Virus record (IMG/VR): IMGVR_UViG_3300048987_000005
Coordinates: 1 to 36,967 of that record
Direction: 5' to 3' (one strand)
From: a virus
Length of the DNA: 36,967 bases
Shown piece after piece: positions 2,196 through 36,859 of the stretch. The notes beneath the pieces were generated by a model, which worked only from the letters and a program-made list of their open reading frames with translations, was not told where the DNA came from and searched no databases. Both the position numbers and the translations under genes were made by a program. The stretch's first letter is position 1, and the number at the start of each line of letters is the position of its first letter.

Positions 2196-4927
2196 TATCC
2201 GCCAGCAGCCTTTTTCTTAGCGTTACGAATAGAAGCTTTCAATGGTACTTGTTGCCTTCTCAGTTCAGCCGCCTGTTGACCAGGTGTTACCTTATAAACT
2301 CCAGCACCAGTTAAGTAGTTAAGAGTTTGAGGAGACATCACCTTTTGCTTGCCAGTTAGCAGCTTATAGATCTGATTCACTGGGGAGAGTTGACTAGCAA
2401 GGTAACTTGTATTACTCCCTACAGGGGCTCCGCTGAAGGCAGCTTGCCCCATAGCCTGTTCAACTGGAATACGAATAGCTGGGTTAGTTTGAGAAAGCAA
2501 ATTCCTTAGAACGCCAGACTTGCCACCCTCAGCAAACTTACCAATATCATTAAAGGGCAAAGCAGGAACACCAAACTTAGAACCACCAAGATCAATTGGA
2601 GACATCTCTTTCAGCCATTTAGGAATAGAATCTAGTGGCCCTGCATTATATCCTTTATCAGTTCCAAGAAGACGCTGAATTGCAGCCTGTCCCTTAGGGA
2701 TAGTGGCTACTCTACCTGGATGAAGTGCAAGAGCCTCCAGCTGTAGAGGAAGGTTCTTACGAGTCCAAGTATAGAATGGCATGATTCTTTTAAGCTTAGT
2801 CTTTTCAAAATCCGTCATGTCGCCGTAGTCAATGTTAATCTTACGGACTTTAGCGCCAGCCCTACTGGCAGCTTCTCTGATATCTTTTTCTGTAGAGTCC
2901 TTTGTAAGATTAGCACCTTCCTTCTTGAACTGTTCAATGAAATTAGCCATACGTGTAAAGTCTTCACGCTTCTCAGCTATGTTTCCTACAGTCCCTTTGA
3001 AGCCATGATAGGCTTTACCCAGTCCACCAGAAGGGTCGGCTTGCAGTTCCCCCAAGGTGAAACCTGGCTTAGCACCTGCTTCAACGTTATGACGAAGAAT
3101 ATCAGTACCAGAGAAAGTTCTTTCTCCCACCTTAACAGCTACTTTCTCAGGATCACCATAGACTATCTTACCTGCCGTAGCGTATCTTTCAGGGTTGGTC
3201 ACTCCACCGAGTACAAAGTTATTCCAAGCGTCCCCAACTAAGTTACGTACGTGATGTCCTGGGTTAGCAGCAGTATTCCAGAACTTCCATTGATTCTGAA
3301 CCTTGTCAAAATGCTTGAGAAATTCTCCAACTAGCTTATCACTACCGTGCATTGCTTCCATAGCTTTGTATGAATCAGCAATGTGTGCAGGAAATAAAGT
3401 AGTTTTGGGAACATATGGAGAATCAACTGACTTGTATCCTAGTTCCTTAAGATTAGCTCTACCTTCCTTAGTAGCGAACAACTTCTTTACTTCATTATTA
3501 TTTGTATCAACACCAAAGTGTTCCGCTACTTGCTTAGACCACTCAGCCCTAGCAATACCCCCATGAGAAGCACCAATACGCTTCATAAGGATATCATCAA
3601 TAGGCAGAACTGGATCAAGTCCTAATGACTTAGCATGAGCAAGAGATTCAATACTTCTAGGCATAGTGAAGCCAGGCCTATCAGCCCCGATAGCCTTTAG
3701 CTTCTTAAGAGCCTGGGCGTCATTCTCAGCAGTCTTGTAGTAGTGTGGTACGTAGTTTTCCCGTCTAGTTTCACTGAAAGTAAGAGGCCTACCTGTTTTC
3801 TTATCCAAGTGAACGCCTGTATCTACTTCATGCTGTAGACGCTCATCTAAAATCTTACGTGCTTCATCTACGTATGTACCAAGATCCTTACCATTCTCTG
3901 CCTTAACTCCGTGAAGAGAACTAGTTGCCACTTCTCTAGTAATAGGATTTGTTACAGGACCTTTTTCAGCAGCATGAGTGACTAGCTCAAGTTCATGTGG
4001 CTTCAAATCTTTGAATATAGCTTTGACTCCTCGCATATCTTGCTCTGCTTTAGCAATCCCCCTAAGCTGAGATTCACGCTTAATTACGTTAGTCATTTCA
4101 GGGAATTTGAAAGAAGTACGAAAAGCCTCGTTAGCTAATGCCCCAGCCTTAGTACCAGCAACAGCTTTCCCCGCCTTAGCTACAGCTGAGTAGGCCTTTT
4201 CAGATTCGGCTACGGGCTTACCAAACATCTTGAGAACTACCTTACCGGGGGCATCAGTCTTAGCTCCAGCATAGGCTGCTTCTCCAGCTTTGAGAGCCTC
4301 AGGATAAGCTGCTCGTCTTGCAGCGCTCTCACCTTTACCTACAGCCTTAGCAATAGTCTTTTCTTTCTCAGCTACATCTACACCTTTAGCTGCGTATCCA
4401 GCTTCCTTAGTTCCCTTCGCTACTTGACCTGCTTCTTCAATAGCTCTAATAGTTTCAGGCTTAGCGAAGTGTTCAGCAATTGCTCCCAGTTTAGCAGTTT
4501 TAGCTAGGCCCTCTCCACCAGCTTTAACAACCCCACCACCTACATAAGTGAGGGGATCAGTTAAAACATCACCGACTAAACTAAGACCAGCTTTAAGAGG
4601 TTTATTCCTATTAATACTTTGAAAAGCTCCACCATGCCCACGTTCAATAATGGAACCTACGTCAGTCTTAGACTTACCAGCAAGTCCAGAAACTACACCT
4701 CTAGCTACATCTCCTACACCCTTACCCTCTGCTAGTCTAGCAATAGGCTCGTCTACTGCATACATAGGTCTACTAATAACGTCAAAGATACGTGACAAAA
4801 TAGAGGGCCCGCCCTTCTTAACGGACCCTCCTTGAGCTTGTACCTTAGCTGCCATTGCACCAGTCTGTGCCTTAGTCTTAGCAACAGACATTCTAGCAAT
4901 AGCATCTTGCACAGCTTGACTAGGCAT
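2195..4927 (-). CDS. Large internal virion (ejection-type) protein
   Basis: This is 910 residues, basic and Ala/Lys-rich with long helices. A recognisable segment around NPGHHVRNLVGDAWNN also occurs in large virion-associated proteins of several phages and mobile elements. Basic Ala-rich stretches flank it. In short-tailed phages the genes after the nozzle protein encode internal proteins ejected with the DNA, and this gene sits in that position before the endolysin. A GAAGG site precedes the ATG, and the start abuts the upstream stop. I see no lytic transglycosylase motif. An internal or ejection role is inference from order, size and composition. Confidence 0.6.
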   Translation of the reverse strand: MPSQAVQDAIARMSVAKTKAQTGAMAAKVQAQGGSVKKGGPSILSRIFDVISRPMYAVDEPIARLAEGKGVGDVARGVVSGLAGKSKTDVGSIIERGHGGAFQSINRNKPLKAGLSLVGDVLTDPLTYVGGGVVKAGGEGLAKTAKLGAIAEHFAKPETIRAIEEAGQVAKGTKEAGYAAKGVDVAEKEKTIAKAVGKGESAARRAAYPEALKAGEAAYAGAKTDAPGKVVLKMFGKPVAESEKAYSAVAKAGKAVAGTKAGALANEAFRTSFKFPEMTNVIKRESQLRGIAKAEQDMRGVKAIFKDLKPHELELVTHAAEKGPVTNPITREVATSSLHGVKAENGKDLGTYVDEARKILDERLQHEVDTGVHLDKKTGRPLTFSETRRENYVPHYYKTAENDAQALKKLKAIGADRPGFTMPRSIESLAHAKSLGLDPVLPIDDILMKRIGASHGGIARAEWSKQVAEHFGVDTNNNEVKKLFATKEGRANLKELGYKSVDSPYVPKTTLFPAHIADSYKAMEAMHGSDKLVGEFLKHFDKVQNQWKFWNTAANPGHHVRNLVGDAWNNFVLGGVTNPERYATAGKIVYGDPEKVAVKVGERTFSGTDILRHNVEAGAKPGFTLGELQADPSGGLGKAYHGFKGTVGNIAEKREDFTRMANFIEQFKKEGANLTKDSTEKDIREAASRAGAKVRKINIDYGDMTDFEKTKLKRIMPFYTWTRKNLPLQLEALALHPGRVATIPKGQAAIQRLLGTDKGYNAGPLDSIPKWLKEMSPIDLGGSKFGVPALPFNDIGKFAEGGKSGVLRNLLSQTNPAIRIPVEQAMGQAAFSGAPVGSNTSYLASQLSPVNQIYKLLTGKQKVMSPQTLNYLTGAGVYKVTPGQQAAELRRQQVPLKASIRNAKKKAAGG

Positions 4928-25153: not shown

Positions 25154-25478
25154 GGGTTTTCTGGGGCCGGTATCGTAGAAGTAAGGGTTTAATAGTGGAA
25201 GAATTGGAGTAATTTGTAGTAATTGTAATTCAAGAAAAGATACTAGTAAAACGAGGGAAAAAGTTGGGGGAGTTAACATTATTGGCATACCCGTACCCTT
25301 GTCTACTAGACCGATCGACTTAATAGACAATGCCCACACTGAATGAGCAGTCAGTCAGTGAGTCAGCGTCAACGTTGATGTTGACCAAATGAATGACCAT
25401 TCACTCAAGCCCGGAGCCGAGAGTGCATACCTATGCATAGAAATTCAATATCATTAATCGGCACAGACCCACATCCTG
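25154..25478. other. Gene-free divergent control region
   Basis: No convincing gene is seen here. It holds an AT-rich part (about 25190-25290), a CAGTCAGTCAGTGAGTCAG repeat (25348-25366), an inverted repeat GTCAAC-N6-GTTGAC (25368-25385), GAATGACCATTC, and the palindrome TGCATA-CC-TATGCA (25424-25437). This suggests operators between the leftward late and rightward early transcription units. A leftward GTG frame (25133-25339) lacks a ribosome site. Confidence 0.6.
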
Positions 25479-25487
25479 TGTTATGCT
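25479..25487 (+). promoter_or_regulatory. Extended -10 promoter ahead of the tRNA-like RNA
   Basis: TGTTATGCT fits an extended -10 (TGn plus TATGCT). There is no good -35. Transcription would start near 25494-25498, exactly at the 5' end of the tRNA-like sequence. Confidence 0.5.
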
Positions 25488-25497
25488 CTTGTTGTTG

Positions 25498-25618
25498 GGC
25501 AGGGAAGTGCGATCGGGACGGCTTATAAACCGGGTTCGGAGAAATTGCACGGTGCGGAGCGGTACCACTGGAGGTGCGCCTCTAAGTAACCACGAAGGTT
25601 CGAATCCTTCCCCTGCCA
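25498..25618 (+). ncRNA. 121-nt tRNA-like RNA with enlarged D-arm region
   Basis: The ends form a perfect 7-bp acceptor stem (GGCAGGG with CCCTGCC) and a canonical T arm, GAAGG-TTCGAAT-CCTTC, directly abutting it. Between them I see three more arms: a 7-bp stem GTGCGAT/ATTGCAC enclosing 30 nt, a GGTG/TACC stem with an 8-nt loop, and a long stem with GAGG-TGCG-CCTC at its tip. That makes a cloverleaf-like layout, but much longer than a normal tRNA. No 7-nt anticodon loop with U33 is clear. CCA is not encoded. It may be a tRNA mimic rather than a decoding tRNA. Confidence 0.6.
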
Positions 25619-25650
25619 CTGTAATCAATACTTCGAAAGGGCTAGCTGTG

Positions 25651-25836
25651 ATGCTTCCTAACATAACCATCAGCCTGATAGAGCGAACCATTGACAATCT
25701 CTGGGGAGATGGTGCCGACTGGCATAACGAACTTAAAGCAGAAGGTATGCCCGATTCTCCGGAGCTGACAAAGCTTCTAGCCTATATACTGTATCTTGAA
25801 GAGATTCGCTTTGCACTTTGGTATAACTGCGAGTAG
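25651..25836 (+). CDS. 61-residue early protein
   Basis: The ATG (25651) or the adjoining GTG (25648) follows GAAAGGGCTAG, the ribosome-site style of this region. A longer frame runs through the tRNA-like RNA and is not used. The protein is helical and acidic with many aromatics (TIDNLWGDGADWHNEL). It is the first gene after the tRNA-like RNA; its function is unknown. Confidence 0.65.
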   Translation: MLPNITISLIERTIDNLWGDGADWHNELKAEGMPDSPELTKLLAYILYLEEIRFALWYNCE

Positions 25837-25840
25837 TTGC

Positions 25841-25874
25841 TTGACTCTAGCTCTCAAGTGTGGTATCTTGAGAG
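25841..25874 (+). promoter_or_regulatory. Early promoter with -10 dyad
   Basis: TTGACT (25841-25846), 17-base spacer and TATCTT (25864-25869). An 8-bp inverted repeat CTCTCAAG-N8-CTTGAGAG (25851-25874) spans the -10, so a bound protein there could block polymerase. It drives the 52-aa gene. Confidence 0.75.
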
Positions 25875-25910
25875 TGTGAGCCAGGTCACTACTAGGAAAG
25901 GGCAAACACT

Positions 25911-26069
25911 ATGACTACGAATGGCTTGTCTGCTGGTGATAAGGTTATTGATTTCAGAGGAGAGCAGAGGGGTACTGTTACTGCCATCTATACCGATCGG
26001 GCCCCTAAGTCTGACAGGGTGGTAGTCAACGGACGTGAGTACTACTGTACCGTTTGGTCTAAGATCTAA
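25911..26069 (+). CDS. 52-residue early protein
   Basis: GAAAGGGCAAACACT directly precedes the ATG. The protein looks like one small beta barrel (GDKVIDFRGEQRGTVTAIY and DRVVVNGREYYCTVW), the pattern of small SH3- or KOW-like folds. It is coupled to the next gene by TAATG. Function is unknown. Confidence 0.7.
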   Translation: MTTNGLSAGDKVIDFRGEQRGTVTAIYTDRAPKSDRVVVNGREYYCTVWSKI

Positions 26070-26293
26070 TGTCTATCTATTGGTGTAAGCGTAGCGACGT
26101 GATGGCAGGTAGTGTGCTTGAGGCTAAGGACCGTGACTCGGGCATGACGTTCACCATCACCAACAAGTACACTCACTACCAGCTTAAGGTGAAGGGTATG
26201 CTGTATGGTGATGTCATCCCCTTTAACGAGACTTGGGACTACAAGACGGTTGGTGCATGCAAATCCTTCGTAACCAGACATTTCGGTCGCTGA
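26069..26293 (+). CDS. 74-residue basic early protein
   Basis: It starts in the TAATG overlap and shares a transcript with the 52-aa gene. It is beta-rich and basic (GMTFTITNKYTHYQLKVKGM), with two Cys far apart. I do not recognise the family. A host-takeover role is possible for such early microproteins but not shown. Confidence 0.65.
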   Translation: MSIYWCKRSDVMAGSVLEAKDRDSGMTFTITNKYTHYQLKVKGMLYGDVIPFNETWDYKTVGACKSFVTRHFGR

Positions 26294-26307
26294 TCGCTCA
26301 CTAGGTC

Positions 26308-26349
26308 TTGCATTAACGGTTGCGCTCTGGTATCGTGGGTTCTAGAGCG
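26308..26349 (+). promoter_or_regulatory. Early promoter with -10 dyad
   Basis: TTGCAT (26308-26313), 17-base spacer and TATCGT (26331-26336). The inverted repeat CGCTCT/AGAGCG (26323-26328 and 26344-26349) surrounds the -10. It precedes the 43-aa gene. Confidence 0.6.
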
Positions 26350-26395
26350 TTTCCGCTAGTACAATACCGTACTACGTCTACAGCAGGAGGCTAGT

Positions 26396-26527
26396 GTGTT
26401 CGAAGTCTTTAATTACAAAACCGGCGAGACTCTCGGTTACACTGATGATGAGAGGATAGCTAAGCTTTATACCGTGCTTAGAATCTCCTCTGATTACATC
26501 AACGCAGATGAGGAGGAATCCTGCTAG
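26396..26527 (+). CDS. 43-residue acidic early protein
   Basis: A GTG start follows CAGGAGG, a strong ribosome site. The protein (FEVFNYKTGETLGYTDDERI, then an acidic end) has no known motif. A leftward frame over this region is a shadow. It lies behind its own promoter. Confidence 0.6.
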   Translation: MFEVFNYKTGETLGYTDDERIAKLYTVLRISSDYINADEEESC

Positions 26528-26590
26528 ATTGGAGGTAATCCTCACTTCTAGGCACGTTTGGCGAGATTTTACTTCGATTTCGTCCATTTG

Positions 26591-26640
26591 AAAAAAACGT
26601 GGTACCCGGGGGGACCCCCCTATAGGGGGGGGGTCCACCA
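26591..26640 (-). terminator. Homopolymer G/C hairpin followed by T7 on the leftward strand
   Basis: Runs of G6 (26608-26613), C6 (26615-26620) and G9 (26625-26633) can pair as alternative hairpins, with CCCCCC-TATA-GGGGGG perfect. On the leftward strand the stem is followed by seven T (complement of 26591-26597), the intrinsic terminator layout. It could stop antisense transcripts between early cassettes. Run lengths may be unreliable. Confidence 0.6.
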
Positions 26641-26677
26641 CCCTAAGAGGTACCCTGAAGCCTCGATACATCGACCC

Positions 26678-26706
26678 TTTACACACCCCCTCTGACCTGC
26701 TATTAT
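26678..26706 (+). promoter_or_regulatory. Near-consensus promoter
   Basis: TTTACA (26678-26683), 17-base spacer and TATTAT (26701-26706). It reads into a possible 26-aa frame and then the 318-aa gene. Confidence 0.65.
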
Positions 26707-36263: not shown

Positions 36264-36859
36264 TTTGTAGGGCCGTAAGAGCTTCCCCAGCTAGTAGGTC
36301 CTACAGCGAGTTGGTAGTGCCCGGCTAAACAGGGAACTACACATTATTGGATCTACAGTGAGTAGTCGAGCCCGATCGCTCCGAGAGACACGGCTGCACT
36401 CGGCACTGTAGATCCAACTAAACCGTCACTCATGGGGTCAACTATGCGGTAAGGAGAGAGCGGGCGTGAAGCATGGAATCCCAATATTAGTCCGCACTCA
36501 CCCCACCCTGCGGAGTGGAGTAATAGAAACTCACTAGCTTCATCAGCTAGAGTACCTAGTGCAATTCTAGGCTCCGCAACTGGGAAGAGATAAGAACAAG
36601 TAGAAGAAGATTCTAGATTAACTTCTATGTATGGCTTATCTCTTCCCGCATTTCTCTGTTACAGGAGCGGGTGCATAGACGCCGTGTCAGTGTGCAAACT
36701 CGGGTTGAGTCGAGACAGCTCTCGAAGAATTAATGGCTGTAGGGTCCTGTAACAGAGTTTCTCCTAGGGTGGGGTTAATGCCCTTTCACCATCCTAGGGT
36801 GGGGGAGTTGAGCGCAGCTACCATCCCACGATTGTAACTGCGATCCTCCCCCAGTATTT
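36264..36859 (+). ncRNA. Gene-free interval of consecutive hairpins: candidate large structured RNA
   Basis: No open frame with a ribosome site is seen. The stretch holds many inverted repeats. Main ones: GTAGT-g-CCC/GGG-a-ACTAC (36314-36340); 14 bp TTGGATCTACAGTG with its complement (36347-36360/36404-36417); TCCGCA/TGCGGA (36491-36514); CTAGCT/AGCTAG (36534-36550); CCTAG/CTAGG (36555-36571); 13 bp GGGAAGAGATAAG (36582-36594/36635-36647); 13 bp CTCTGTTACAGGA (36654-36666/36745-36757) enclosing ACAGC/GCTGT; and GGGGGAG/CTCCCCC (36801-36852). The H4 loop can pair with a distant repeat. It could be an RNA of the ornate large class or, less likely, an origin. Confidence 0.6.
36763..36804 (+). 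repeat. Two direct copies of CCTAGGGTGGGG
   Basis: Copies at 36763-36774 and 36793-36804 in the structured interval. Both contain GGGTGGGG, complementary to CCCCACCC in the loop at 36497-36508. Confidence 0.8.

What the first reader, a model, noticed from the sequence alone, without database searches (positions are those of the whole stretch)
25498..25618. A 121-nt tRNA-like RNA with canonical acceptor and T arm but a large extra arm
The 7-bp acceptor stem and T arm fit a tRNA exactly, and an extended -10 promoter puts the start at the 5' end. The middle is about 45 nt too long and lacks a clear anticodon loop with U33. This may be a tRNA mimic, such as a decoy or a regulator of the following genes, or a tRNA with an insertion.
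Basis: partly seen in the sequence, partly recalled or inferred. Interest (0 to 1): 0.75.

Follow-up and report, generated by a model that had tools for sequence, protein, structure and literature searches.

The report
Oversized, non-decoding tRNA-like phage RNA
A small environmental phage carries a gene for a 121-nt RNA whose two ends fold exactly like a transfer RNA but whose middle cannot read a codon; it resembles a little-studied kind of tRNA-like RNA of unknown function that I also find, mostly unannotated, in other phages including T4, and it may act as a tRNA decoy.

Summary
Window 25498-25618 folds with a perfect 7-bp acceptor stem, a perfect 5-bp T arm with consensus loop TTCGAAT, and an A discriminator base. 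The Rfam tRNA model scores it 25.8 bits, E = 6e-5 for the whole record, below its cut-off of 29. It is the only such structure in the window; dinucleotide shuffles gave 0 all-Watson-Crick cases in 1500. The middle is about 45 nt too long, has no 7-nt anticodon loop with U33, and no single deletion restores a tRNA, so it is not a plain tRNA with one insertion. The fold of the middle is no better than shuffles and is uncertain. A 99.5% identical relative carries an unrelated cassette in place of the RNA and the 61-codon gene behind it. No sequence homologue was found. The same plan exists elsewhere: a different 132-nt example in a sister phage, T4's stable RNA species 1 (rnaC), and an almost unannotated 147-154-nt RNA in about 230 Ackermannviridae records, where acceptor, T arm and an inner arm covary. 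I read it as a phage-borne, tRNA-processed, non-decoding tRNA-like RNA. Decoy action against tRNA-targeting host factors is plausible but inferred. A decaying tRNA gene is the main rival.

The parts
25479..25487 (+). extended -10-like promoter element TG-T-TATGCT; predicted start near 25494
   Evidence: sequence; no -35 match, not listed by the promoter scan
25498..25618 (+). 121-nt tRNA-like RNA
   Evidence: structural scan and shuffles; Rfam tRNA 25.8 bits, E 6.1e-5; fold
25498..25504 (+). acceptor stem, 5' strand GGCAGGG
   Evidence: 7/7 Watson-Crick with 25611-25617
25507..25550 (+). elongated D-like arm: GTGC/GCAC base extended to 7 bp; GATCGG follows the 5' strand like a D loop with G18 G19, then about 25-30 extra nt
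   Evidence: pair probability 0.98-1.0 for the outer 6 bp; tRNA model aligns it as D stem
25551..25566 (+). arm at the anticodon position: 5-bp stem GGTGC/GTACC, 6-nt loop GGAGCG, no U33
   Evidence: MFE; pair probability only 0.53
25567..25587 (+). extra arm at the variable-arm position, 8 bp, loop TGCG
   Evidence: MFE; pair probability 0.2-0.53
25594..25610 (+). T arm GAAGG-TTCGAAT-CCTTC
   Evidence: 5/5 Watson-Crick, consensus T loop
25611..25618 (+). acceptor stem 3' strand CCCTGCC plus discriminator A; CCA not encoded
   Evidence: sequence
25635..25641 (+). ribosome-binding-site-like GAAAGGG, as before other early genes of this phage
   Evidence: sequence
25651..25836 (+). 61-codon gene directly behind the RNA, no known family; no relative found in viral contigs
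25360..25831 (.). cassette (RNA plus 61-codon gene) replaced by unrelated DNA in a 99.5% identical relative

Best explanation
It is a phage gene for a non-decoding tRNA-like RNA. Shown: its outer half is a complete tRNA acceptor/T half, the anticodon half is replaced by enlarged structure, and the gene is part of an exchangeable cassette at the head of the early genes. Inferred: it is transcribed from its own extended -10 promoter; RNase P and 3' tRNA processing cut out the RNA (freeing the mRNA of the next gene just upstream of its ribosome-binding site); CCA is added and the T loop modified, so it accumulates as a stable RNA like T4 species 1. Most likely use, inferred only: it occupies host factors that recognise the acceptor/T half or a class II (Tyr/Ser/Leu-like) tRNA body, such as tRNA-cleaving defence nucleases or toxins, as a decoy that cannot be used for translation.
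For: Perfect acceptor and T arm beyond chance; tRNA model E 6.1e-5. Nearest normal-length phage tRNAs with this acceptor and A73 include several tRNA-Tyr; one (L053) differs by one base over the last 26. Class II-like five-arm MFE. T4 rnaC, a documented stable RNA, has a 5-bp T arm with compensatory changes among relatives and a partly or fully paired acceptor. An Ackermannviridae RNA of the same plan covaries in acceptor, T arm and inner arm (30 cells changed on both sides against 9.1 in shuffles). A sister phage carries a different 132-nt tRNA-like RNA with acceptor GGCAGAG. Cassette exchange is typical of accessory, often defence-related genes (general knowledge). [quoted passage not shown] PMC11555353 abstract).
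Against: No homologue of this RNA, so no covariation test on it. The middle is no more stable than shuffles. No expression data. No host known, so no target. Decoy action is inference. It does not sit in a tRNA cluster as T4 rnaC does.
Confidence: 0.5

Rival explanations
1. A decaying or rearranged phage tRNA gene, perhaps once a class II tRNA such as tRNA-Tyr, that gained D-loop sequence and lost its anticodon arm and has no function now.
For: G18 G19-like GG at the right place in the D-like arm; 3' end nearly identical to a phage tRNA-Tyr; middle no more structured than shuffles; other phages carry tRNAs with inserts.
Against: All 12 pairs of acceptor and T arm are intact while the rest is beyond repair by any single deletion; conserved RNAs of the same plan exist in T4-like phages and Ackermannviridae.
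Confidence: 0.3
2. A cis-acting leader: a tRNA-like fold in the 5' UTR of the 61-codon gene that is cleaved by RNase P, or binds a tRNA-binding protein, to control that gene.
For: It lies 32 bases upstream of the start codon and was exchanged together with that gene.
Against: The pieces are equally explained by a separate RNA gene; the other phages carry such RNAs in tRNA arrays.
Confidence: 0.1
3. The 3' part of a tRNA gene kept as a phage attachment site (attP).
For: attP sites often hold the T arm and acceptor 3' strand of a host tRNA (general knowledge).
Against: No integrase found among the tested genes; the 5' acceptor strand is also present; the 25-nt 3' end with up to one mismatch occurs in 0 of 396 genomes sampled from the phylum of a genome holding a distant relative.
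Confidence: 0.04
4. Chance pairing.
For: A T arm alone is not very rare, and the middle fold is ordinary.
Against: 0 of 1500 shuffled windows show an all-Watson-Crick structure of this size; tRNA model E 6.1e-5.
Confidence: 0.04

Closest known systems
Bacteriophage T4 stable RNA species 1 (rnaC, 139 nt; function unknown, PMC9697503)
   Same: Phage-encoded, oversized, non-decoding; perfect 5-bp T arm with consensus loop; ends pair as an acceptor (5/7 in T4, fully paired in Yersinia phage fHe-Yen9-01); a hairpin and a short linker just before the T arm.
   Different: No sequence similarity; T4 rnaC lies in a tRNA cluster of a large myovirus and is expressed late; the window RNA stands alone at the head of the early genes of a small phage and has a perfect 7-bp acceptor.
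Unannotated 147-154-nt tRNA-like RNA of Ackermannviridae (Kuttervirus, Agtrevirus, Taipeivirus; found here)
   Same: 7-bp acceptor, 5-bp T arm, enlarged middle without anticodon arm.
   Different: Different middle, conserved in about 230 records, located next to tRNA genes.
132-nt tRNA-like RNA of the sister phage IMGVR_UViG_3300020156_000043 (L067 2489-2620)
   Same: Same phage group; acceptor GGCAGAG/CTCTGCC and A73, close to the window's; perfect T arm.
   Different: Normal D arm; the enlargement is in the anticodon arm (ARAGORN's intron mode reads tRNA-Arg(UCU) with a 58-nt anticodon-loop insert); different genome position.
Canonical class II phage tRNA-Tyr (e.g. L053)
   Same: Same acceptor, A73 and T stem; 25 of the last 26 bases.
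   Different: No anticodon loop, no U33, U8 or A14; 121 instead of 88 nt.

Membership tests
canonical tRNA (Rfam RF00005) | 7-bp acceptor and 5-bp T arm with TTCRANN loop | tested here: met
canonical tRNA (Rfam RF00005) | score above the family's cut-off | tested here: not met
   25.8 against 29 bits
canonical tRNA (Rfam RF00005) | anticodon arm with 7-nt loop and U33 | tested here: not met
   no single deletion restores one
canonical tRNA (Rfam RF00005) | core residues U8, A14, G18 G19, Y48 | tested here: not met
   A at 8, G at 14; GG present in the D-like loop (sequence)
tRNA with an intron in the anticodon loop | a normal tRNA after removing one stretch | tested here: not met
   ARAGORN intron mode finds nothing at default threshold; deletion scan no better than shuffled middles
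tmRNA | tmRNA model or tag reading frame | tested here: not met
   no tmRNA by ARAGORN or Rfam up to E = 10
T4 species 1-like (rnaC) phage stable RNA; no formal family | oversized phage RNA closed by acceptor and T arm, without anticodon arm | tested here: met
T4 species 1-like (rnaC) phage stable RNA; no formal family | sequence homology to T4 rnaC | tested here: not met
T4 species 1-like (rnaC) phage stable RNA; no formal family | processed, stable RNA in infected cells | not testable with these tools
   needs RNA from infected host
T4 species 1-like (rnaC) phage stable RNA; no formal family | lies in a phage tRNA cluster | tested here: not met
   only tRNA-model hit in the record
tRNA-gene attachment site (attP) | phage integrase and matching host tRNA | tested here: inconclusive
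   none found, but the record is incomplete and the host unknown

The most novel reading that the evidence does not exclude
Oversized tRNA-like RNAs with an intact acceptor/T half and a replaced anticodon half are a widespread, largely unannotated class of phage RNA (this RNA, T4 rnaC, the Ackermannviridae 150-nt RNA and others), kept as accessory decoys against host tRNA-targeting immunity.
Probability: 0.22. Interest if true: 0.85.

Novelty: new variant of a known kind. Interest (0 to 1): 0.55.

Why it matters
T4's stable RNAs are still listed as of unknown function (PMC9697503). Finding RNAs of the same plan in unrelated phages, one of them conserved with covariation in about 230 Ackermannviridae-type records yet almost unannotated, turns an oddity into a testable class. 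Standard tRNA finders miss it. With tRNA-cleaving defences now known, a decoy role can be tested directly in laboratory E. coli and T4.

Tried and rejected
Searches for relatives of the RNA found nothing: the 17-mer AAGTGCGATCGGGACGG in viral contigs; D-arm plus T-arm pattern, five chance hits; 3' pattern TAACCACGAAGGTTCRANYCC; blastn in phages and plasmids, only tRNA 3' ends or short chance matches; nine related virus records. The 61-aa protein has no relative in viral contigs. No antisense match of more than 10 nt within the window. Restoring a tRNA by one deletion failed. Of seven oversized hits to the same acceptor, L019 is a normal tRNA overlapping a chance 7-mer, L018 looks like a tandem partial duplication, and two pairs are duplicates. 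A donor tRNA with the same 3' end in sampled genomes: 0 of 396. A covariance model of the window RNA was not built because there is only one sequence. Searches failed for technical reasons.

Full report
Setting. The window is a 36,967-base virus record, a phage with a major head protein, portal and terminase whose large terminase is 39-43% identical to Arthrobacter phage Jasmine relatives and a spring-water podovirus; an actinobacterial host is inferred. A near-identical record, IMGVR_UViG_3300044720_000008, overlaps both ends of the window in circularly permuted order, so the window is probably a partial genome of some 46 kb. The RNA lies between the leftward small terminase gene and the rightward early genes.

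Observation. At 25498-25618 the sequence pairs as a 7-bp acceptor, a 5-bp T arm with loop TTCGAAT, and an unpaired A. It is the only structure of this kind in the window. In shuffled windows such structures of at most 140 nt appear at 0.005 per window with G-U allowed, and none of 1500 shuffles gave one with all pairs Watson-Crick. The Rfam tRNA model matches the full 121 nt at 25.8 bits, E 6.1e-5 for the record, just below its cut-off. ARAGORN misses it. So it is tRNA-related and not chance.

The middle. The minimum-energy fold has five arms, like a class II tRNA: an elongated D-like arm with a GG where G18 G19 would be, a 5-bp arm with the 6-nt loop GGAGCG, an 8-bp extra arm, and the T arm. 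There is no U33 loop, no U8 and no A14. But the middle is no more stable than dinucleotide shuffles (31% as stable), and the 3' half of the middle has a competing fold at similar probability, so only the outer half and the base of the D-like arm are secure. Removing any one stretch does not give a normal tRNA; shuffled middles do as well.

A swapped cassette. The near-identical record is 99.5% identical over window 1-25359 and 96.5% over 25832-26699, but the 472 bases between them, which hold the RNA and the 61-codon gene, are replaced by about 415 unrelated bases with another small gene. A more distant relative (L005) also lacks the RNA here. No sequence relative of the RNA was found in viral contigs, phages, plasmids or nine related records.

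Others of the same plan. A pattern with the same acceptor and an oversized middle gave seven viral contigs, of which four independent ones are credible: tRNA-like genes with inserts in different places or a partial duplication. Ten contigs carry normal-length tRNAs with that acceptor. The structural rule then picked out a 151-nt RNA next to tRNA genes in Salmonella phage GG32. It is present in about 230 Ackermannviridae-type records, mostly with no feature or a hypothetical protein annotated. In ten sequences its acceptor, T arm and an inner arm covary: 98.6% of cells paired, 30 cells changed on both sides against 9.1 in shuffles, slid controls 41-48% paired. It matches no Rfam family. T4 rnaC, a documented stable RNA of unknown function (PMC9697503), has the same T arm with compensatory changes in relatives and acceptor pairing of 5/7 in T4 and 7/7 in Yersinia phage fHe-Yen9-01 (the latter read by eye from the alignment). 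A sister phage with 75% identical terminase holds a 132-nt tRNA-like RNA with acceptor GGCAGAG, different from the window's by one compensatory pair; homology of the two is unproven.

Mechanism. Transcription from the extended -10, processing by tRNA enzymes, CCA addition and stability are inferred from the intact acceptor/T half, which is what these enzymes recognise (general knowledge). The best functional guess is a decoy. Host defences cut tRNAs, including tRNA-Tyr in its variable loop, and phage tRNAs counter them (PMC13096335; PMC11555353, abstract). The window RNA's outer half is closest to phage tRNA-Tyr, and accessory cassettes are where such genes are exchanged. No step of this was tested. 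The chief rival is a decaying tRNA gene.

Verdict. Not a tRNA by definition, not a tmRNA, not a single-intron tRNA. In plan it resembles T4 species 1 RNA, without being a sequence relative of it; whether it works the same way is unknown, because the function of T4 species 1 RNA is unknown too.

Noticed in passing
L036 3461-3611 (Salmonella phage GG32; also L037-L045): A 147-154-nt tRNA-like RNA, almost unannotated, conserved in about 230 Ackermannviridae-type records with covarying acceptor, T arm and inner arm; no Rfam match.
   Followed up: partly
L036 724-846 (Salmonella phage GG32): A second oversized tRNA-like candidate of 123 nt (6 of 7 acceptor pairs) about 1.2 kb before tRNA-Met.
   Followed up: no
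L017 2477-2591 and 2597-2705: Two adjacent phage tRNA-like genes whose anticodon loops hold a similar insert of about 37 nt (GTACAG.TTGTAT...CTG.CTACAGC...CAAAAT); similar free copies follow at about 2880-3340.
   Followed up: partly
L067 2489-2620 and 1706-1777 (IMGVR_UViG_3300020156_000043): A 132-nt tRNA-like RNA that ARAGORN's intron mode reads as tRNA-Arg(UCU) with a 58-nt insert in the anticodon loop, near a tRNA with an 8-nt anticodon loop and a tRNA-Leu.
   Followed up: partly
L021 2781-2916 and 4068-4210 (same in L022): A tRNA-Met-like gene with about 60 nt inserted between acceptor and D arm, and a 143-nt tRNA-like structure nearby.
   Followed up: partly
window 36509-36580: ARAGORN's tRNA-Met gets no support from the Rfam tRNA model; probably a false positive.
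   Followed up: yes
window 25340-25410; L005 4530-4650: Short direct repeats between the divergent terminase and early genes (window GAATGAGCAGTCAGTCAGTGAGTCAG; L005 several GTAACTGTTTACTTAGA), perhaps operator sites.
   Followed up: no
L018 3471-3546 (-): A twister-sister ribozyme match of 38.5 bits, above its cut-off, in a 52.7-kb viral contig.
   Followed up: no
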